Origin: Enoplosus armatus
Taxonomy: Eukaryota; Chordata; Actinopteri; Centrarchiformes; Enoplosidae
Assembly: GCF_043641665.1 (NCBI RefSeq)
Contig: NC_092189.1
Coordinates: 9,502,833-9,566,832 of the forward strand
Direction of reading: 5' to 3'
DNA: 64,000 nucleotides
This document shows, piece by piece, positions 3,611 to 64,000 of the stretch. A program made the translations under genes and the position numbers. Position 1 is the stretch's first letter, and each line of letters starts with the position of its first letter. The notes beneath the pieces are model-generated. The model worked only from the letters and a program-made list of their open reading frames with translations, was not told the origin of the DNA and ran no database searches.

Positions 3611-4922
3611 CTCATGGAGTCAAATAAGGTACCCGATTGCCACAATATGTGTTTAAAAAAAAAAAAATAGCACTTCTTAACTTAATTACTCAATCAACTC
3701 AAACATACAGACATGTTACACTTGTTTTTAATGTAGATTCCATCATAAATAAATGTCCATAAATCCACTTAGAAATCATAGAAAAGAGACTTAAGACTTA
3801 AGTATTCTTCAGCATCAAAATAATCCAGTTATAGTTGTTTATACATCCATGGGCAAACAGGAACTTTTAATTGCTAACTCTGCATATTTTTAATGGCATC
3901 AAATGCTGCATTATGGCAGAGCATGTTGGGGGGGGTTGTACATTTGTCTCTATTTTGTCTGACGTGCCGCCCCTCTGTCTTAATACATTGTAGTTGAGTG
4001 CACATTCTGATATCCATCGTTCAGTCAAGGACAGCCACTGCAGACAATTGGAGACTGTTCACCCTGTTCACTGTGAGAGCAACTAATGGAAAAATAATGG
4101 TGTGTATCGGATTCTCTCTTTTTTTCTATATTGGGTTCATTTTACCCTCAGCGTGGCTATTATGAATTCCTAACTCAACACCTTTGAGCTTTGATTAAGA
4201 GAAGATAGCCATCAACACAGCTGTCATACTCCATCCCCTCTATTGTTGGTTGAATGTCACCTCCTTTAATTAGCTCCCAGGTTGGGAATCAGCCATCTAT
4301 TTTGTGGCCAGACTTGCCTTCTAACCTGCAGTCCAGGAGGGAGACCAGATGTTTCTCTCAGAATGATTAACTCATGAGACTTGACTGGTTTGTGATGGAG
4401 TACCCTTTAAGTGTTCATTGTTATATTTTCTTTTACCAAGCTGGCAGACCATGTAACTTTGCCAAGATAGTTTCCCCTGGTTTGCTATACTATAACTGGA
4501 CAGAGGCAAGTAAAAAAAGCCTGTTAATAACTGTAAACATTTAACGTAGTTTAACTCTCATAATGTTATGTGTTCAAAGGTAACACATAGCACACCACTG
4601 TGATTCCACTGTGATTCAAGTTGGCAGAACAAAGAGTGATGTGAAGTCGTTTGATTACACTAACAGTATAATTGGTCATCAGCCAATCAGACTGGGTGGC
4701 CATTGATCAGCCAATCACACTGATTACCGATTTTAATGTCCACTGAGGCAGCAGGGTATCATTCTCGATACAAAGGACCTAACAATCCTGCAAAAACAGA
4801 TTCTCTTTAATCCTCCCTTTGTCTGTTTTCTACAAAAGTAGCCACAGATGCACTTCAAGAGCGAATTCTAAGAATTAAACTGTTCATCATCATCATTATC
4901 ATCACTTCATTGGGCTTAATCG

Positions 4923-5298
4923 TTAATCCTAAAGTACCTGTAGGAGTGTTTGACCACTATTAGCACTGTGGAGCAATGTTTTTCTCAGAGGGTTTAGTTT
5001 AGTTTGTATTGTGCATGAGGGTGCACATACATGGGCGATGCGATACACACTCAGGCCACTGCCAAACGTAGCAATATGGCGACAAATACAGTGAAGAAGA
5101 TGCCTGTTTGCTAGCTGGATGTTGGATGTAAACGATGCGCAATTTAAACAATTTAAGAAATGGGCTTTGCAAATATTTTATGAGGAAATAGATTCAACAT
5201 GTTTGTTAGACCTAAAGAATACACAGTGTGTTTCAGTGAAAACACTGAATGTAAACTTAACTTTTTGTTTACAAGGAAACTCTACAGGGCACCTTTAA
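4923..5298. mobile_element. Non-autonomous DNA element (MITE-like)
   Basis: The left end begins TTAATCCTAAAGTACCTGTA. The right end closes with CTACAGGGCACCTTTAA. These are degenerate inverted repeats of each other, flanked by TTAA-like sequence. The internal segment about a CATGAGGGTGCACATACATG motif matches my memory of a family common in percomorph genomes. It has no coding capacity. Confidence 0.6.
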
Positions 5299-7090
5299 CC
5301 CAGTTTAGACAGTTTAGTTTGATTTTTAATGTTTGATTAACATAGAGATGTTTTCACAGTGCTCAGAACCATCTCCTCCCACAGTGCAAACGTTTATTGC
5401 CTCAAGGACAAAACACACATAGAGTCTTAAGGATATAGTGTGTACAGTAAAATACTGTACATGCATGTGTGTGTTGTGTAAAGATAAACATATGCCTATA
5501 ATATCCCCAAACTTTCATCTTGGCAGGCCACAGTCACACACACTCAGACAGACAGACAGACACACACAGATACACACACACACTGACATTTATTCATTGA
5601 CATTTAAATAAATTTGGCCTCAGGGTCTCAGGGAACATTTGGATCCATAAAGAAAACCCCAAATGGCAGCTGTCATTTACTTACAATTTTTACAAGTAAA
5701 ATTGTCAAACAGCTCTGACAATATAAAGGAGATCCATGTAGCTTATATTTTTGCCACGGTCTACAAAATATAATAAACCACAGCAGATGTCCAGTAATTG
5801 ACATGCCATCTGCGCCAAAGGAAATCTTATTTATAGCGAGATGTGCTTGACAGTGAAGTGACAACTTTATGAGCACCACCAGGAACTCTGTGGTTCATGT
5901 TAGGGCTCCAGAGCAGGAGACTTTTCAGTCCTTTCGATCTATATTTCCCTGTGGCCCTGTGGTCTGTTAGTGGGATTTCACAAGTGTCAAGATCAGATGG
6001 TTTGTGTGATTGTGTGTGTGTACATGGCTGTATGTTTTAAGCAGAACAGAACAGGTGTGCCTCTCCATACTCTCTGCAATATTCAATAATTACAAATTAA
6101 CATTCATCAACATGCACATGAAAGCCACATTTAGAAGGCGAATAGTACTCGGCTTGTTACCTAACCCACCCGCCCCCTCCTCTCTCTTTGTTAACAGCTC
6201 TCCTGGTGTGTAAATACCAGTCTGGTGATTAATGGTCGGATGTAAGTCCTGTTGTGTCTCTGTCACATCATCTATCATACAGCCCAGGATGACCACTAGC
6301 AATGACAAGATGAATGGGTCTGATAAACCGGGTCTGGTTGCCAGTTAATAAGCTAGCTAGAACTGTTCACCTTTTGTTATTAGTTATGCCTCTCTAGCCA
6401 GAAATGTGACTCCCAAACCCCAAAGAATGGGCTTCTTTGTCAGCTCTGCCTCTAGTTTTTGGCACATAAGCTCATGTCCTGTTCAGATTTGGTTTACACT
6501 CTTTTGCTTGGTGCCATATTTTCACGTATGTGGTTATTAGTTCTGTGCCCAAGTTCAAATGGCATTGTTCTCACCTGTCAGAATGAACCAAACGGGAGGA
6601 ATAAATGCTCCACGGTGTGATTGAACTGCTGCAGACATGACTAGTGCGAACATGCCCTCAGGGCGCTACAAGGAAGCACAGCGTAATCAGAGAGCCAACA
6701 CATTACATCTGGAGCTGAATCCACATACCTCAAGGGCATGCCCTGCCCTTTCTGAAAGGCTGCGCTTTTGCTTTTTGCCACAACGGGGCACTTGGCTCTC
6801 ACCTTCACAGGCCCAGCCCGGTCATCACCCAGACTCTTCTCCCTCCTGGTCTCCAGTGGTGAGCTGACCTTCTCACTAGTCCAAAGAGCAGAGTCACACC
6901 CTTTCTTTGATTGTAGGCTAAAAAGTCAGAGGTAATGCACCCTAATGTTCATGTCTGCTAGTTAACTTATCTCCTGTCTCATAGTTATAAATAGTTTCTT
7001 GTGTCTTCATACTGTATCTAATTACAGTACTGTTTGCTGTTTGTAGACATACTTTTTACACCCCAATCATTTATATGATTGGTAGCTAAC
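5299..7090. other. Intergenic, no gene seen
   Basis: This holds a short CA/GACA-rich microsatellite (about 5.53-5.59 kb) and otherwise unique-looking sequence. Open frames are all under 80 codons and lack splice-site or motif support. Confidence 0.55.
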
Positions 7091-48976: not shown

Positions 48977-50072
48977 TTAAGCCAGTTTCAGTGTCTCCTT
49001 AACCATGACTCCTATTCCATCAAACACTTTATGAAAGGGAGCATTGCACATGAACGCGCAGGTGGTGACCAGCTTGTTTTTGACATCGACGTGGGCTTTG
49101 TCCACGTCCGTGTTGACATGTTTGCAGCCCATCTCCTTCACGGCACCTGCTGTCTGAGCATATGGCCACCTAAAGACAGAAAGCGAGGGGAAGTTAGAAC
49201 TGTAGATTGAGATTTTTTTTAAATATATATATATCGATAGACATCTGATGAAGACAAAATATTTTACACACTTTTCACACTCTTTGTCCTGTCCCACAGT
49301 GAGCTCGCAGCCAGGCAGGATTTTGGCAGCAAGGATAGGGGAGATGCAGCACATGCCCAGAGGCTTTCCGGCTTTGTGGAAAGCCTTGATGAGCCTCTCT
49401 AGATGTGGCTGGATGGTGCAGTCCTTATTCTTCACTGCCCAGTCACTCAGGTTCTTAGCCACGCCAAAGCCCCCTGAATGAGAATACACAGGATTTGTTT
49501 AGCATATCACAACAGTGGATGTGAAAAAACTAAGAGAAATGTAAAATATTTTACTCTATGGCATCTATCTATGGCCTAACCTGGGATGATGGCAGCATCA
49601 AAAGCAGAAACGTCTAACTTGGCCAGATCAGTCACCTCACCCCTGGCGATGCGGGCGCTTTCCTGCAGGATGTTTCTTTTCTCCTCTGTAGGTTTCCCCT
49701 CACAGTGATTTACAACATGCATCTGATCTGCATTTGGAGCAAACATCTGCACCTGAAATGAAACACCAGCATGTGAGACTTTCTATATCGGACCAGCCTC
49801 TGCAGCTAAGGATTGTGGGATCTTTGTAGAGTTGTTATTAAGGCTAACTGTATCTTAGTGGGTCAGGTTTATGACATTGCTTTTGTTTTGCTAAATAAAT
49901 GTAATGTAGATGTGAAAGTTCCCTCTAAATGGGACATTTTCTTCTCTTCTTTTCTTGCCCTTACTTTTGCTTCGGCCCGGCTCAGATGGACGAGGACAGC
50001 AGAGGCCTCGTGGACCTCTGTGCCGTCATAGACTCCACATCCTGAGAGAATAACTGCAACACGCTTCACCAT
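48977..50072 (-). CDS. ES1/GATD3-type DJ-1/PfpI family protein
   Basis: Four coding exons on the minus strand give 224 aa: 50072-49965, 49752-49581, 49473-49272, 49169-48977. The N-terminus [17 protein letters not shown], the [15 protein letters not shown] segment and the LGMCCISP nucleophile elbow (Cys135/Cys136, the latter aligning with the Cys of bacterial ElbB as I recall it) identify the ES1/ElbB branch of the class-I glutamine-amidotransferase-like fold (GATD3 in mammals). ElbB-type proteins have been tied to glyoxal or methylglyoxal handling; the role here is unknown. The translated part starts at the conserved first strand, in CACCATGG-like context, and lacks the mitochondrial presequence of vertebrate mitochondrial ES1. 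A non-coding exon (about 50590-50524) precedes it and contains no ATG. It is therefore likely a cytosolic paralogue. Confidence 0.9.
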
Positions 50073-50614
50073 GGTTCCTCTGAAACACACACATAAAGCA
50101 CACACGTTAATCTACACTCTAAAGATATATGGATTATATAGACAGCATAACTTTATTTTTATTTGACTTATTTGTTTCCCTATCAGATGTGAAGAGCACT
50201 GCTCCTGAGCCACCTGTTGAACATGTTTACATAAAAGATTTATAGAGCCAGGTGACAGAGGAGTACCAGGAGTGCTGCTGCTGCCAGGTAAAGTGAGCCG
50301 GTAAAGAGAAGTTACAGGAAGTGGTGCGAGTCTGCCGCGCAAGACTGGAAAATGATATGTATCAGATGTATCAGACACTTCATCTTTTCCCTCATGCATT
50401 TTGCAGTGCTACTTTGTATAACACTACTGTCTGACACCAACACGTGTTTGCTCCTAAAACATCAGGAGAAAGCATTGGTTAAGTTTAGATTTTAAAAGTG
50501 AAGACATTGTAGATAGATCTCACCTTGTTTACGTACGTAGGTGTCCTGGCTTTACGCTGTGTGTGATGGAGCTGCTCAGCAGAGGTGTGCTGGCTGAATT
50601 CTGAGTTCAGACTC

Positions 50615-50620
50615 TTTATA
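50615..50620 (-). promoter_or_regulatory. TATA box of the ES1-type gene
   Basis: TATAAA reads on the minus strand about 30 bases upstream of the inferred non-coding first exon, whose donor (CAAG then GTGAGA) lies at 50523. It is divergent from the TATA box at 51235. Confidence 0.6.
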
Positions 50621-51216
50621 GTCCTGCTGCCCGCCTCTCTGTCTCCTCCCACCACCTGCTGTACAAAACGCTGACATCATGCAGCCTGAAGGTAACCAGG
50701 AACACTGATGAGATAAAATGCTGAATCATTCCTCTCAGTAACTTAGTTATCAATTGACAATAAAAGTGACACAACAAGGAAGCTTTTACATTACATAATT
50801 AGTTTATTTTACTGAACACATTTACATGCTCTACTTTTTCATAGATAAAGATGCATGAATAACTAGACCAAATACATACTGGAAATATAGACATGTGTAC
50901 TCAGTGTGGTATAATATGAATGTCAGTCTTGTTCTTATTTGCATTTTATACATAAACTACATAAATCATCAGATTTGTATTATTAAAATTTTACTAGTGG
51001 AAAATTAAAAATGAAATTATGATCGTATTAGCTTAACACAAGTGTGTGTTGATATTTAGATTAAATTGCTATTCAAAAATATTACATATTACATACTACA
51101 TGATATCTCTTATCTCAATATCACATGCAGCAGCCTGTGTTTCCTCTGCTGTGACGGACCTGTCACGGATTTTCCCCGTGAGGCGCAGCTTTTCTTCTCA
51201 GGTTTCTCCTGCGTGC

Positions 51217-51240
51217 TGACGTCACACGCAGCCGTATAAA
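51217..51240 (+). promoter_or_regulatory. CRE-like site plus TATA box of the fusion gene
   Basis: A perfect palindromic CRE, TGACGTCA, at 51217-51224 stands ten bases before TATAAA at 51235-51240. The start codon follows 36 bases after the TATA box, so the 5' leader must be only a few bases long or transcription starts unusually close. Confidence 0.6.
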
Positions 51241-51275
51241 GCGCCGCCTCACGTCCTCAGAAACCCACTCGCGAT

Positions 51276-54200
51276 ATGGCTCAGCTGCACTCTCTGCATG
51301 TGTCCGTCGGCATCCTGGGCATCTCTGGCGGTAACCTTTCATTTTTATGATTTTTTTGCAGCAGGCAGTCGCTTGCCGTTGTAATTCAATTCAATTTCAA
51401 TTTTTATTTATATAACTATTTGTTTTAAAAACTAAAATAATGACTAATGGTCTATTAGAAACCAACTCTGTGCTTATTAATAATTAAATGTCATGGTAAT
51501 ATATGTGCTAAAAAATAAAGGGACATATTAGTTTGGTATCAAATTTTAAGAAGCATGTTCAAGTTTTAAGCTGTAGAAACTAAAAACTAAAAGGTAAAAC
51601 TCTACTGCTAATATCAGAAAACAACTCTATTCTAAAACCAATCATACTGCTGCAGATATTTTTATTAAATTAATAATTAGCTACATAAAACATGTAATTA
51701 CGTGAGGAAATTAGATAGGGAAACTTCTCGGTGTCTTACTACCCAGGCACCTGTTCTGCAAAAATCACAGTCCTTTTCATCAAAATGTTAAAAAATAAAA
51801 ATGCTGTTAATCTAGTTAATGTGTTTTCTGTTCTGACTTATAGGTTCCCTCCTGCTTTTGGTCAACAACTATGCCAGCTCACCTGAAAAAGACTTCATCC
51901 CCCATACTGCACTGGGGATTCTGCTCCTCGTCATTGCAGCCCTCTTAGCTTATGCAGGTTGGTTTTGATGAAAGCTAACCACAGGTTTAGTTTGATTCAT
52001 TCATTTGTAGCATTGGTTGTATTTGTGTGTAAAAGTCATAAACCTCTCTCCTCTGTTTACTCTCTGTCTCTCAGGTATCCGTCGCAGTCTGTCCCACGCC
52101 CAGCTGTTCTCCTCTCTGTGTCTCACTGTCTCTGCCCTGTGGTGTGGTTCGGGTCTGGTGTACATCCTGGTGGGGCAGGGGGTGCTGCAGCCCACAGAGC
52201 TGAGATCCTCTCTGGTCCCAGGCCTGGCAGCAATTGCCTTAGCCCTGCTCGTCATAGGCAGCGTAGCAGTCGTGGCAAAGAAAGCAGTTCTGTTTCTCAT
52301 AGCTATTGGCATTAGCTTAGCATGTGCCCATCAAATCGCAGGTTTGTCAGCTGTAGGTTTTGATCAGTCTGCCACAGCTGCTAACTACCTTCTTGTCTGT
52401 CTGGTGGGTGTTTACTTTGGTTCTGGACGCCTGCTGTCCACCGTCACTCGTGGTAAAGTGGAGCCTCCAGGAACGGGCCTGAAGAGGAAAGCTGAGCTGA
52501 AGGCAGAGCAGAACCAGGGGTGTAGTGATGCCGTGTCAGTAGGTCTGGTGATGAACTTGCTGTCTGCCTCTGTGCTAGCCTGTCCTCTGTTAGGGGTGGT
52601 CCCCCGGCTCTCCATCGGCCATGTCCCCTGGCTGTGGACAGCTGGAGTCTTCCAGCTTGGCATGTGTGTCCTCTTCTACCGAGCCATGGACACACTAGCT
52701 GCCACGTTTTACGGCTTCACTGCTCTGCTGAAATTTGCAGAAGGCTACAGCGCTCTCCTGTCATTCTACTCCATTCAGCCTTTCTCCCCTGTTCCCTTCC
52801 CTGTTGTCTTCTCCGTGCTTTTCTCCGTCTTGGCTCTGTTCAGTTGTCAGAAGAGCTTGCTGGAGGGGCTCTACCAGTTGTTCTTTGCAGCTTACTGTAT
52901 TGCCATTGCAGCCCAGCCTCAAGGCTTCTTCCAAGGAGGCACGCAGGGTGTGCAGGGAGCTATATTTGTAATCTCTGCCGGCATGCTTTTAATTACCACA
53001 TTCAATATGGTCGCTACTACAATGATTCCCACAGGGCAAGGCTATTTCAGTGCTTTAGTAACCAGGATACAGGGTCTTACTCTCAGAGCCCATGATAAAG
53101 AGCTACATGCACCTCACCTGGGCTACTCCAAGTATGCAGATGCAGAGGTGTTAGGCCACGCCTGCAGTGTGCTGGCTGCTTTTGCTGTCACAGCCACCGT
53201 TGCTGACAGAAATCCTCTGTCTGTGCTGGTTCTGCCCTGGGTGGTGGTGGCTGGAGGGGCACTCCAGCTGCTCTGCGGCTCAGTAGCTTTTGCTCGAGGT
53301 AAAACCTTCGAAAGCACAGTTTTTATTCTCTACGGGGTGATGTGGACAGTGTGGGGGTTGACACGATACGGCGGCCTGTACGGTGAAACCAGAAGCTTTA
53401 ATGTGGCTGTGGGGATCGTTAGCTTCATGATGTTTAATATTTTAGTGACAGCTGCAGCGCTGTTTCTAAATGTCGCCTGGTTTGCCTACGCCCTTACCTT
53501 CCAGCTCATCCTTATTAGCTTCCTGCTGGATGCACTAGATGCACTGCCTTATGGTTATGACATAGGAGTCACCATCATCTTTGGTCTCGTCAGTTTTTAT
53601 TGCTTCCTGGCACACATTTTCAACGGCACCTTCCAGTCCCCCCAGATCCCCTTAGGAAAACCTTTAGTCAAGCTGAGTGGGGTTGGTGGGGGTGCAGATA
53701 TCTGTCCGCATGTACCAGCCCGTAAAGCCACGTCTGTCCAGCAGATTGCAGGTGAGAATCTGTTAAAGAAATCTGTGTTGATTTTTTTTTTTAAATACAC
53801 AGTTGTTTCCATACTTGATGTGAGCGTCATTTTTCTTCTTCTTCCATCTGCAGAAATCATGAAAAATGGTGGCATATGTGGAATGCCTACTGACACCGTC
53901 TATGTGCTGGTGGCAGCTTGCAACAGGCCCGACGCAGTTGTCAAAGCTTACAAGTGAGTTTCCACTTTCATGAGTGTGCCCTCATCTGCGTTCACTTACT
54001 GATTCAGTCTCATTACTCTAATTGCTGTGCTGTTGACTTCAGGGTAAAGAAGCAGGCCCAGGACCGACCCATGTCCCTGTGGATCTCCTCCATCAAGCAG
54101 CTGGAGCTGGTGCGTCACCTGCTGAGCCCTCTGCTCCTGGACTTCATGGAGGCTGCGTGGCCCTCCTCCATTAGCATGGTTGTACCCAGAGGTAGGTGTG

Positions 54201-55104
54201 CATTTGTGGATGCATGTTCCTGTGGGTGCCTGATGTTGCATGGCAGGGGTTTTATGAGCATCATATTGGTTTCTTGTCTCGCACAGGCCCGTGGATGGAC
54301 ACCTTTGGTTTAGGAGACGCTGCCAAACACATAGGGACTCCACAAAGCATTGCTATCAGAAACCCAGACTGTTCTGTGGCAACACACCTCATCAATCTGG
54401 TAAGGGCTGTGGAAAATAATCCTTACATGTCTCAAAGTGAGTGAAACTGGTCAGCAGGCCCAAACAACGTGAAAACAACAACCTTTTTCTTGCAGGTGGG
54501 GCCCATCGCTGTAACCTCAGCCAACCCTACAGGCGAGGCAGACACAACTCACCACAACCAAGTTTACGCCAAGCTGGGTGACAAGGTGCAGACAATACTT
54601 CAGCGATATTAAACACAAGAGGCACTGCTGTTCTTATTTTATGCACTAAATTACATGTGCATTTTTCTTGGTTAGGTGGATGGAGTGTTGTGTGATGGAG
54701 CCTCCCCAGAGAACATTGCATCTACTGTGGTTGACTGCACTAAGATTGAAACAGGGCATATTGGTTTCTTCAGAGTGGGTCTCATTCCTAAATCTAAGGT
54801 AACAGCAATATCCCTTCTCTTTCTATTCATTCTGAATGAACACTTTCAGTTTAGTGTATGCTTGAACACTAATGTCCGCTGCTTTTGCTTGTGTGCTTTG
54901 AAGGTTCTTCAAATCTTCGAGGAGGTTCAGAGGCGGCACAGACAGGGGCAGACGAATCTTGCTTTTGAATATGATCTGCAAGATGCACAAAGGGACAAGC
55001 ATTCAGGAGAAGACGACACAACAGAGTCAGGAAGAGGAACTGAAAGCTCAACACCATCCACAGTTTCACCTGAACAAGGTCCAGACCTCAGAAATGGGTC
55101 ATAG
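51276..55104 (+). CDS. AceTr-like multi-pass membrane protein fused to YrdC domain
   Basis: Nine exons give 873 aa: 51276-51330, 51844-51957, 52075-53751, 53854-53953, 54043-54191, 54287-54399, 54496-54585, 54676-54798, 54904-55104; all GT-AG and in phase. Residues 1 to about 600 are very hydrophobic, about 18 possible membrane segments, most of it in one 1,677-base exon. GGALQLLCGSVAFARGKTFE (from residue 450) followed by a small-residue helix matches the core of the GPR1/FUN34/YaaH acetate-transporter family; weaker versions start near residues 57 and 247, suggesting three tandem units. Residues 616-807 are a YrdC/Sua5 domain: PTDTVY at 627-632 and SANPTGE at 744-750. In true YrdC enzymes this fold makes threonylcarbamoyl-adenylate from Thr, bicarbonate and ATP for tRNA t6A. 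Here the K-x-R-P signature reads KKQA (652 region), so that activity is doubtful. A hydrophilic acidic tail ends the protein. Poly(A) signal at 55267. Confidence 0.85.
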
Positions 55105-60459: not shown

Positions 60460-60918
60460 TTCACAGAATTATTCAGTACAAGAATACCCAGCGAGGTGAA
60501 ATACACACAGTAACAGTCGTTTTCTGTTTCGCCCTTAAAATTGACATAAGTGTGAAATTAATGTCAACATACAGTAATATTCAAAGGTATAAATACATAT
60601 TTATAGAATCATTAACCATTTACAAGTCATTTCATAAATATATTGTTTTAACTATCCCAAATATCAAAGCTCTTAAAGTTTTGTTTTGATACAGCTGAGA
60701 AACAGACAAACAAATGGTTATTTTATTGCAACATATGCAAGGACATCCACAGTTCTAAACATATACAACCAACAAAAGCTTTCACTCAGTCTTTCTCATA
60801 TTATTCATAAAGTGTCCCTGCCATTGTCGAATGGAAATGGGGAAGCTGAAGAAGCCGATCTTGTAGGGAACCAGGCATGAAGAGGCGCTCTGAAGGAGAG
60901 AAATGAGACACGAGACAA

Positions 60919-61592
60919 TCACACCATAGTGCTTTTCACTCTGTCAAAGATCTGCCGGACTTTCGCTGCAGGGACACAGCCTTCCCTCACAATGGTGATG
61001 GTCCCTGTGGACAGAGTAAGACAGGCTTGAGTTAGAAAGTGCCTGTTTAAATACATAAAGATTTAATGAGAATGTAATGGGAATATTCCTGCGTTTTACC
61101 TTCATCAATCTTCAGGCAGTTGACCACGGTAGAAGCTACAACTTCATTTGAGTCCCCGTCACACAGAACCCCTTGGATCTTGTGTCCCAGTCGCCTGTGG
61201 CAAAACAGATGGTGGGGGAGGGCGTGTGAATGAATGTGTGTGTAGTTGCCATCCATTGACAGACAATAAATGACACATTTGTCACTCACTGAGATTAATC
61301 TGCTGTAGAAGGACAATAAATACTATCATAGGTCAGATCAGATCACTACAAGCAGTTTACAAATCTCTCCAAACTGAAGCGTGACACGGTACGTTGTGCA
61401 TCGGAGAAATAACAGGAAACATGGGGACTTGAATACAGTGGAGTTCTGTGAAGAGACACTTACTTGATGACCATACTGTGGTGAGTGCTGTCCGGCTCTC
61501 CGCTGGGATTGGCTGAGGTAATAGCAAGGGGTCCAGTGATGTCACATAAGTGGCCGCTCGCCATGTAGTCATGATGCTGTCCTTGGTGCCAA
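60919..61592 (-). pseudogene. Truncated YrdC gene 3' copy
   Basis: This is the left duplicate of the last three exons of the YrdC gene entering from the right edge. The final two exons (61194-61100 and 61004-60919) are intact and encode IQGVLCDGDSNEVVASTVVN and the C-terminal helix ending in a stop. The third-last exon (about 61592-61464) is cut off at its 5' side. Relative to the right copy it has lost 13 bases net, shifting frame just before the SANPSG nucleotide-binding segment. No upstream YrdC exons lie between it and the right copy. It could not encode a complete domain alone, although its two intact exons could be used by read-through splicing. Confidence 0.8.
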
Positions 61593-62809: not shown

Positions 62810-63268
62810 TTCACAGAATTATTCAGTACAAGAATACCCAGCGAGGTGAAATACACACAGTAACAGTCGTTTTCTGTTTTGCCCTTAAAATTGACATAAG
62901 TGTGAAATTAATGTCAACATACAGTAATATTCAAAGGTATAAATACATATTTATAGAATCATTAACCATTTACAAGTCATTTCATAAATATATTGTTTTA
63001 ACTATCCTAAATATCAAAGCTCTTAAAGTTTTGTTTTGATACAGCTGAGAAACAGACAAACAAATGGTTATTTTATTGCAACATATGCAAGGACATCCAC
63101 AGTTCTAAACATATACAACCAACAAAAGCTTTCACTCAGTCTTTCTCATATTATTCATAAAGTGTCCCTGCCATTGTCGAATGGAAATGGGGAAGCTGAA
63201 GAAGCCGATCTTGTAGGGAACCAGGCATGAAGAGGCGCTCTGAAGGAGAGAAATGAGACACGAGACAA

Positions 63269-64000
63269 TCACACCATAGTGCTTTTCACTCTGTCAAAGA
63301 TCTGCCGGACTTTCGCTGCAGGGACACAGCCTTCCCTCACAATGGTGATGGTCCCTGTGGACAGAGTAAGACAGGCTTGAGTTAGAAAGTGCCTGTTTAA
63401 ATACATAAAGATTTAATGAGAATGTAATGGGAATATTCCTGCGTTTTACCTTCATCAATCTTCAGGCAGTTGACCACGGTAGAAGCTACAACTTCATTTG
63501 AGTCCCCGTCACACAGAACCCCTTGGATCTTGTGTCCCAGTCGCCTGTGGCAAAACAGATGGTGGGGGAGGGCGTGTGAATGAATGTGTGTGTAGTTGCC
63601 ATCCATTGACAGACAATAAATGACACATTTGTCACTCACTGAGATTAATCTGCTGTAGAAGGACAATAAATACTATCATAGGTCAGATCAGATCACTACA
63701 AGCAGTTTACAAATCTCTCCAAACTGAAGCGTGACACGGTACGTTGTGCATCGGAGAAATAACAGGAAACATGGGGACTTGAATACAGTGGAGTTCTGTG
63801 AAGAGACACTTACTTGATGACCATACTGTGGTGAGTGCTGTCCGGCTCTCCGCTGGGATTGGCTGAGGTAATAGCAAGGGGTCCAGTGATGTCACATAAG
63901 TGGCCGGTCACCGTGTGATCAGGGACGCGGATCATGATGCTGTCCTTGGTGCCAACACGGTCATAAGCTGGTCCCACTCCTACACAAGAGAAGTTCCTGA
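63269..64000 (-). CDS. YrdC/Sua5-domain gene, 3' exons (partial, continues off window)
   Basis: Three in-phase terminal exons on the minus strand are visible: 63979-63814, 63544-63450, 63354-63269 (stop TGA). They encode a YrdC C-terminal half: SIMIRVPDHTVTGHL, then GPLAITSANPSGEPDSTHHS carrying the S-x-N nucleotide-binding motif, then GVLCDGDSNEVVASTVV and a final helix ending STMV. The protein parallels residues 691-830 of the fusion protein at 51.3-55.1 kb (for example SANPTGEADTTHH and VLCDGASPENIASTVVD), so the two are paralogues in inverted orientation. Here one exon covers what is split by an intron there. The tail is much shorter. Whether it also carries the membrane domain lies beyond the window. 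The true t6A enzyme or a specialised relative remains open. Confidence 0.85.

What the first reader, a model, noticed from the sequence alone, without database searches (positions are those of the whole stretch)
51276..55104. Fusion of a transporter-like membrane domain to a YrdC/Sua5 domain
Nine exons join in frame into an 873-residue protein with about 600 hydrophobic residues followed by a YrdC fold. YrdC/TsaC/Sua5 proteins are normally soluble or carry a Sua5 or HypF-type partner domain; I know of no characterised multi-pass membrane fusion. The membrane part carries the GPR1/FUN34/YaaH (AceTr) core GGALQLL-G-AFARGKTFE. AceTr proteins move acetate and similar small carboxylates in microbes and are not a known vertebrate transporter family. 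A protein that imports a small acid and hands it to an adenylate-forming fold would be a new arrangement.
Basis: partly seen in the sequence, partly recalled or inferred. Interest (0 to 1): 0.88.

Follow-up and report, generated by a model that had tools for sequence, protein, structure and literature searches.

The report
Triple acetate-channel fused to altered YrdC
This fish gene joins a YrdC enzyme domain, in which one ATP-site arginine is replaced in all 141 sequences compared, to a membrane part that is likely a triple acetate-type channel; it likely moves a small acid during the response to infection, and the joined design itself is already in print.

Summary
Nine GT-AG exons (51276-55104) give 873 residues, with full-length relatives in many ray-finned fishes. 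Residues 408-582 match AceTr (PF01184), 616-789 YrdC (PF01300), both above Pfam's cut-offs. The rest of the membrane part is AceTr-like too: profiles support three six-helix repeats, well in the adjacent paralogue B and in repeats 2 and 3 here, weakly in repeat 1. Fusion and triplication are already published (PMC13316224, June 2026).

Three points I did not find there. (1) This is clade A (zebrafish si:ch211-153b23.4); clade B (.3) lies tail-to-tail beside it, an ES1/ElbB-like gene (.5) on the other side. (2) A lacks the arginine of the YrdC K-x-R motif: 0 of 141 aligned rows have it, though six other substrate residues are kept and YrdC is A's most conserved part; B has it in 17 of 19. A scores below, B just above, NCBIfam's synthase cut-off. 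(3) Four zebrafish papers list these genes beside irg1l, the itaconate-synthase homologue (r 0.86-0.90 in one).

I read A as a likely small-carboxylate channel of the infection response, possibly for itaconate, whose cytosolic YrdC domain probably senses rather than synthesises.

The parts
51276..51330 (+). A exon 1 (ATG; residues 1-18, repeat 1)
   Evidence: GT donor, in frame
51844..51957 (+). A exon 2 (residues 19-56, repeat 1)
52075..53751 (+). A exon 3 (residues 57-615), holding the rest of repeat 1 and repeats 2 and 3
52521..53081 (+). AceTr repeat 2 (residues 206-392)
   Evidence: repeat-2 profile (residues 200-392) against the merged AceTr profile, probability 80.6, E 1.3e-5, 175 columns covering 3-186 of 188; not significant in pairwise tests
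53115..53681 (+). AceTr repeat 3 (residues 404-592), the copy that Pfam recognises
   Evidence: PF01184 E 1.4e-7 on this part alone; against SatP probability 97.2, E 3.3e-11
53854..54798 (+). YrdC/TsaC-type domain, exons 4-8 (53854-53953, 54043-54191, 54287-54399, 54496-54585, 54676-54798; residues 616-807)
54047..54049 (+). Lys651 codon = conserved Lys of the K-x-R motif (K56 of P. abyssi Sua5)
   Evidence: alignment; K in 139 of 140 rows
54053..54055 (+). Gln653 codon at the place of the K-x-R arginine (R58 of P. abyssi Sua5)
   Evidence: alignment; R in 0 of 141 rows (Q 130, H 4, K 3, A 2, E 1, L 1)
54904..55104 (+). A exon 9: end of the YrdC domain and a poorly conserved hydrophilic tail; stop TAG at 55102-55104
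51235..51240 (+). TATAAA box about 40 bases before the A start codon
   Evidence: pattern scan
48977..50072 (-). Head-to-head neighbour: ES1/ElbB-like gene (taken as zebrafish si:ch211-153b23.5 by name and place)
   Evidence: NCBIfam ElbB 272.7 bits (cut-off 180); PDB ElbB/Es1-type chains, E down to 6e-54; exon joins read by eye
63814..63979 (-). Paralogue B, exon 8; the gene runs from 67032 (window numbering, on L005) down to 63269
   Evidence: ten GT-AG exons, 893 aa
63450..63544 (-). Paralogue B, exon 9
63269..63354 (-). Paralogue B, exon 10 with stop codon

Best explanation
The gene at 51276-55104 is predicted to make a membrane protein of three AceTr (SatP-type) channel repeats followed by a cytosolic YrdC domain, and it likely conducts a small carboxylate, possibly itaconate, during the epithelial response to infection, while its YrdC domain, which lacks the K-x-R arginine, likely binds a nucleotide-type ligand rather than making threonylcarbamoyl-AMP. 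Shown here: the exon structure, the two domain families, the repeats (repeat 1 of A only weakly), the missing arginine across the clade, the neighbouring paralogue B that mostly keeps it, and, in papers, the listing of these genes together with irg1l. Inferred: two chains forming one SatP-like ring of six channels (also proposed in PMC13316224), the substrate, the direction of flow, the cytosolic side of YrdC, and regulation of the channel by it.
For: Family and repeats. B repeats 1, 2 and 3 against SatP: probability 96.1, 93.4, 93.6; A repeat 3: 97.2; their scores of 51-73 compare with at most 21.3 in 49 comparisons against reversed templates. SatP is a hexameric anion channel that translocates acetate (PMC8471396); engineered AceTr proteins move succinate (PMC9409672); itaconate is methylene-succinate (established chemistry). 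Topology: of the 93 B rows with at least 25 residues in the loop between helices 3 and 4 of repeat 1, 92 carry an N-glycosylation sequon there; if that loop is outside or luminal, the C-terminal YrdC is cytosolic. Active site: 0 of 141 A rows keep the R58 equivalent, while the T33, K56, S143, N145, S181 and R195 equivalents are kept in 138-144 rows each; PMC10321239 says all these residues were required for synthesis. A's YrdC scores 111.6 bits against the NCBIfam synthase cut-off of 123.2, B's 125.7. YrdC is nevertheless the most conserved part of A: 67% of columns at least 97% identical, against 23%, 26% and 40% for the repeats, so it is kept for some use. The genome has a separate ordinary YRDC with K-G-R. 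Expression.
Against: Repeat 1 of A reaches only probability 6.1 (E 0.006, score 23.6; best reversed decoy 21.3), and B repeat 1 does not match B repeat 3 directly (probability 0.3). Joint expression is not specific to itaconate: sult5a1 (r 0.91) and si:ch211-207n23.2 (r 0.90) follow irg1l equally in the same table, so all may simply be one inflammatory programme. Of 46 papers naming irg1l, 42 do not name these genes, and in PMC9228135 another exposure lists irg1l among its upregulated genes without them. Mammals have ACOD1 (recalled) but lack these proteins (PMC13316224). No paper seen here shows that AceTr proteins carry itaconate. An arginine four positions on (R657, 138 of 139 rows) might stand in for the lost one.
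Confidence: 0.42

Rival explanations
1. Import-and-activate: the channel brings in a small acid and passes it to the YrdC domain, which activates it with ATP.
For: Fusion of channel and enzyme found in both clades; six of seven substrate residues intact in nearly all A rows and all seven in most B rows.
Against: A lacks the K-x-R arginine in all 141 aligned rows. Known YrdC enzymes activate bicarbonate plus threonine, or carbamoyl phosphate, not acetate-like acids (established knowledge, not from a call).
Confidence: 0.15
2. Membrane-tethered threonylcarbamoyl-AMP synthase: the YrdC domain, at least in B, still makes the t6A precursor, and the channel supplies bicarbonate or senses it.
For: B keeps K-x-R in 17 of 19 rows and S-x-N in 18 of 18 and just passes the NCBIfam synthase cut-off (125.7 against 123.2); YRDC uses CO2/bicarbonate as a substrate (PMC5951830, abstract start in the listing).
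Against: An ordinary YRDC gene is present in the genome; A fails the cut-off and the motif; I know of no AceTr protein shown to carry bicarbonate (not searched).
Confidence: 0.17
3. Microbial acetate uptake: A and B import acetate or other short-chain acids from microbes at skin and gut, and the irg1l link is only shared inflammatory control.
For: SatP and Ato1 carry acetate; other genes follow irg1l equally.
Against: At the SatP F17 position the five repeats of this genome's A and B that align there have polar residues (N, S, N, D, N), which suggests an altered pore.
Confidence: 0.22
4. Gene-model artefact joining two neighbouring genes.
For: No RNA-seq was available here.
Against: Proteins of similar length covering 90-100% of the query in the 120 best hits, bird relatives holding both parts, and a publication on the family.
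Confidence: 0.01

Closest known systems
Vertebrate ATO proteins with C-terminal Sua5/YciO/YrdC domain (Ghasemi et al., iScience 2026, PMC13316224)
   Same: Three tandem AceTr domains plus YrdC, about 900 residues, two vertebrate clades; this gene fits that family and is taken as an orthologue within it.
   Different: The section read and the main-text term searches give no clade-specific loss of the K-x-R arginine, no gene neighbourhood and no irg1l link (supplements not seen).
SatP / Ato1 (AceTr, PF01184)
   Same: Six-helix repeat; the C-terminal P-x-G is kept in all three A repeats and in two of three B repeats.
   Different: Three repeats in one chain; NPAPLGL only partly kept; polar residues at the F17 position; YrdC added.
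TsaC/Sua5/YRDC threonylcarbamoyl-AMP synthases
   Same: Profile family, S-x-N, the conserved lysine and the threonine-site residues; the TsaC-type Thr before S-x-N in 136 of 141 A rows.
   Different: A has no K-x-R arginine and scores below the synthase equivalog cut-off; membrane-fused.

Membership tests
AceTr / GPR1-FUN34-YaaH (PF01184) | Profile match above the curated cut-off | tested here: met
   28.4 bits (cut-off 25), residues 408-582; 31.8 bits on repeat 3 alone. Several A orthologues score below it (17.7-21.8 bits in gar, bowfin and Caloenas)
AceTr / GPR1-FUN34-YaaH (PF01184) | NPAPLGL motif in helix 1 | tested here: not met
   only L12 and G13 kept in repeat 3 (DAEVLG), G13 in repeat 2, not aligned in repeat 1; B repeats 1 and 2 keep P, L, G
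AceTr / GPR1-FUN34-YaaH (PF01184) | Carboxylate transport; hexameric ring | not testable with these tools
   structure prediction switched off; no assay
Vertebrate ATO-YrdC family (PMC13316224) | Three tandem AceTr domains and a C-terminal YrdC domain, about 900 aa | tested here: met
   repeat 1 of A weak
YrdC-like domain (PF01300) | Profile match above the curated cut-off | tested here: met
   109.7 bits (cut-off 25.1)
Threonylcarbamoyl-AMP synthase (TsaC/Sua5/YRDC) | K-x-R / S-x-N ATP-site tetrad | tested here: not met
   S-x-N and K kept, R in 0 of 141 A rows; B: R in 17 of 19
Threonylcarbamoyl-AMP synthase (TsaC/Sua5/YRDC) | NCBIfam equivalog TIGR00057 cut-off of 123.2 bits | tested here: not met
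   A 111.6 bits; B 125.7 bits
Threonylcarbamoyl-AMP synthase (TsaC/Sua5/YRDC) | Enzymatic activity | not testable with these tools
   needs a purified domain

The most novel reading that the evidence does not exclude
Clades A and B are a vertebrate itaconate channel pair, lost in mammals: irg1l makes itaconate in infected epithelium, the six-barrel ring moves it across the membrane, and in A the YrdC fold has become a cytosolic adenylate sensor that gates the ring, while B keeps a working synthase site.
Probability: 0.13. Interest if true: 0.87.

Novelty: new variant of a known kind. Interest (0 to 1): 0.58.

Why it matters
The fusion is published, but the paper that describes it says its biochemical function needs investigation. 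The residue-level split between two adjacent paralogues, one with and one without a complete ATP-site motif, and the repeated appearance beside irg1l turn it into a short list of direct tests. If A or B carries itaconate, non-mammalian vertebrates have a dedicated channel for a central immune metabolite that mammals lack, and A would be a clear case of an enzyme fold reused as a transporter's regulatory domain.

Tried and rejected
Repeat search with the shallow fish alignment alone gave nothing significant; it needed paralogue B and SatP. Pfam alone does not see repeats 1 and 2 of A. A literature search for 'GPR1 FUN34 YaaH' with YrdC returned 0 although PMC13316224 holds both words in its own spelling; it was found through SatP. 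NF-kB, AP-1, C/EBP, STAT and ISRE patterns in 50561-51276 gave no match, so there is no sequence-level support for inflammatory control of the shared promoter. The YrdC tree cannot say where the fused domain came from: the ordinary YRDC and bacterial branches are too long. PMC3695523, the paper cited for the yeast Sua5 mutants, was opened; the passages shown concern KEOPS and Qri7 mutants and K-x-R is not named in its main text, so that claim rests on PMC10321239. The ACOD1 family (PF03972) in the own genome could not be searched, machine busy.
Full report
Observation. Pfam finds PF01300 at 616-789 (E 1.5e-31) and PF01184 at 408-582 (E 1.5e-6), both above the curated cut-offs. A protein search found 386 matches at E <= 0.001; the 120 listed are 795-1016 aa long, 71-92% identical and cover 90-100% of the query; those with a named organism are fishes, including gar and bowfin. 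Many bear the NCBI name si:ch211-153b23.4. A second search, with a 411-aa query chosen so that most full-length fish proteins were outside the length limit, returned 106 proteins, all listed: fish pieces, bird relatives (Caloenas 73%, Ciconia), a salamander model (Pleurodeles, 61%, matching in the membrane part only), a second, more distant type in birds, sturgeon, sawfish and mudskipper, and bacterial-type YrdC proteins.

The paralogue. The second type is the neighbouring gene. On the minus strand, starting beyond the window end and reaching into it at 63979-63269, ten GT-AG exons give 893 residues, the fish form of si:ch211-153b23.3. I call the window gene A and this one B. BLASTP aligns them at 35% identity over 381 columns of the C-terminal part, and also aligns repeat 3 of A with repeat 1 of B (E 3e-5), the first sign of an internal repeat. 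B-type sequences occur in shark and ray, turtle, birds and frog. In a tree of 31 YrdC domains A (10 rows; support 99/98) and B (9 rows; 94/85, just under the tool's mark for firm support) are separate groups. A PF01184 search of the 580-Mb genome listed four places, of which only A and B exceed the cut-off. The other neighbour, head-to-head with A, is an ES1/ElbB-like gene. Zebrafish names .3.4 and .5 come from one BAC clone, which suggests the same cluster there (inference from names).

Three repeats. I compared profiles of the six putative repeats with each other and with 85 bacterial AceTr sequences, nearly all enterobacterial. Against SatP: B repeat 1 probability 96.1 (E 3e-9), B repeat 2 93.4 (2.5e-7), B repeat 3 93.6 (2e-7), A repeat 3 97.2 (3e-11). 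B repeats 2 and 3 match each other (94.9), B 1 and 2 moderately (58.8), B 1 and 3 not (0.3). A repeats 1 and 2 were not significant in the pairwise tests (at most 9.0). Against a profile merged from A repeat 3, the B repeats and SatP, A repeat 2 reaches 80.6 (E 1.3e-5, score 39.4) over nearly the full length; A repeat 1 reaches 6.1 (E 0.006, score 23.6) over 137 columns in register. In 49 comparisons of the single profiles with reversed templates the best score was 21.3; in the four reversed comparisons with the merged profile it was 15.6. These E-values are for single comparisons. So A has three repeats, the first inferred largely by analogy with B and from the published AlphaFold superpositions.

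Prior art. PMC13316224 (Ghasemi et al., 22 June 2026; section 14 read in full, passages elsewhere) reports vertebrate ATO proteins of about 900 aa in two clades, every major lineage except mammals, three tandem AceTr domains with a C-terminal Sua5/YciO/YrdC domain, and proposes that two chains form a SatP-like six-domain ring. Fusion and triplication are therefore not new. The terms itacon, irg1, KxR, GATD3 and 153b23 are absent from its main text; supplements could not be read.

The YrdC site. PMC10321239 (passages) lists K56-x-R58 and S143-x-N145 for ATP and T33, S181, R195 for threonine, and says all were required for synthesis by yeast Sua5. The phmmer alignments to solved synthases of matching numbering (6f89, 6f87) put T628, K651 and Q653 of A on T33, K56 and R58. 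Counting rows of the A alignment (210 rows, the window gene among them; 139-151 cover each site; isoforms, fragments and a few evidently misread models such as P0127 and P0141 are included; five B rows and 12 other YrdC rows, P0215-P0226, were left out beforehand), the arginine is present in 0 of 141 (Q 130, H 4, K 3, A 2, E 1, L 1), while T is kept in 140 of 142, K in 139 of 140, S143 in 140 of 141, N in 141 of 142, S181 in 144 of 151 and R195 in 138 of 141. In B (119 rows, 14-27 covering each site) the arginine is present in 17 of 19; the two exceptions were not examined; T is kept in 17 of 19, K in 19 of 19, S-x-N in 18 of 18, S181 in 21 of 27, R195 in 12 of 14. The own-genome YRDC has K-G-R. 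NCBIfam's synthase model scores A 111.6 and B 125.7 against a cut-off of 123.2. In the 121-row alignment the YrdC domain is the most conserved part of A (67% of columns at least 97% identical; repeats 23-40%). The domain is thus kept, but likely not as an ordinary synthase. R657 (138 of 139 rows) could compensate.

Topology and pore. Of the 93 B rows with at least 25 residues in the loop between helices 3 and 4 of repeat 1, 92 carry a glycosylation sequon there. By analogy with SatP (orientation recalled) that loop is outside and the C-terminus inside, so YrdC is predicted to be cytosolic. SatP F17, recalled as part of the pore constriction, aligns with N, S, N, D, N in the five repeats of this genome's A and B that cover it.

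Expression. Six held papers name .3.4 or .5; four also name irg1l, which occurs in 46 of 5.39 million papers. The other two are a zebrafish stim2 knockout (B with adjusted p 0.18) and a stickleback methylation study. Passages seen: S. sonnei infection.4 and .5 listed directly after irg1l among the top 50 differentially expressed zebrafish genes (PMC6980646); PFOS, the table's five named upregulated genes include irg1l (the strongest of 54 DEGs).4 and .5, but another exposure in the same table names irg1l without them (PMC9228135); nanoparticles, irg1l.3 and .5 among five hub genes of one module (PMC11140123); nonylphenol/triclosan/triclocarban, from which I copied 15 gene rows of 18 values visible in the passages: irg1l correlates with .4 at 0.90.3 at 0.88.5 at 0.86 (.4 with .5 0.87.4 with .3 0.79.3 with .5 0.65); sult5a1 (0.91) and si:ch211-207n23.2 (0.90) follow irg1l as well, the nine others range from -0.40 to 0.50 (PMC8877790). 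irg1l is 62.1% identical to mouse irg1 and is induced by immersion in bacteria, which the authors suggest may be an epithelial response (PMC3206475). That irg1/ACOD1 makes itaconate is established knowledge, not from a call.

Reading. A SatP-type ring that passes small carboxylates, listed together with a homologue of the enzyme that makes methylene-succinate, suggests itaconate or a related acid as substrate. I put about 0.7 on small-carboxylate transport and 0.2-0.25 on itaconate. One held paper has both 'itaconate' and 'AceTr' (PMC7419537, listing only).

Noticed in passing
window 60500-61592 and 62850-63955: A 1.1-kb direct duplication at 98.4% identity copies the 3' end of paralogue B, leaving a partial second copy of its last exons; recent duplication or assembly artefact.
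   Followed up: partly
L005 (G000:C16:9563000-9572999) and window exons: A and B share none of their intron positions in the aligned repeat-3/YrdC region (A at 616, 649, 699, 736, 766, 807; B at A-equivalents 490, 518, 553, 589, 651, 706, 761, 793), odd for adjacent paralogues.
   Followed up: partly
L006 (G000:C15:7920000-7929999), about 4397-5763: Ordinary YRDC gene of this genome with an intact K-G-R motif.
   Followed up: yes
proteins P0333 and P0336, P0197: Distant relatives of unknown organism (37% and 29% identical to B repeats 1-2; 56% to A's C-terminal part, with Leu at the lost-arginine position), possibly early-branching animals.
   Followed up: no
proteins P0208 and P0328 (Acipenser sinensis models): B-type YrdC models also carry an immunoglobulin V-set domain, likely annotation chimeras.
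   Followed up: no
window 50073-51275: Head-to-head region of 1.2 kb between the start codons of the ES1-like gene and A, with a TATA box close to A's start; no common inflammatory motif matched in the part scanned (50561-51276).
   Followed up: partly
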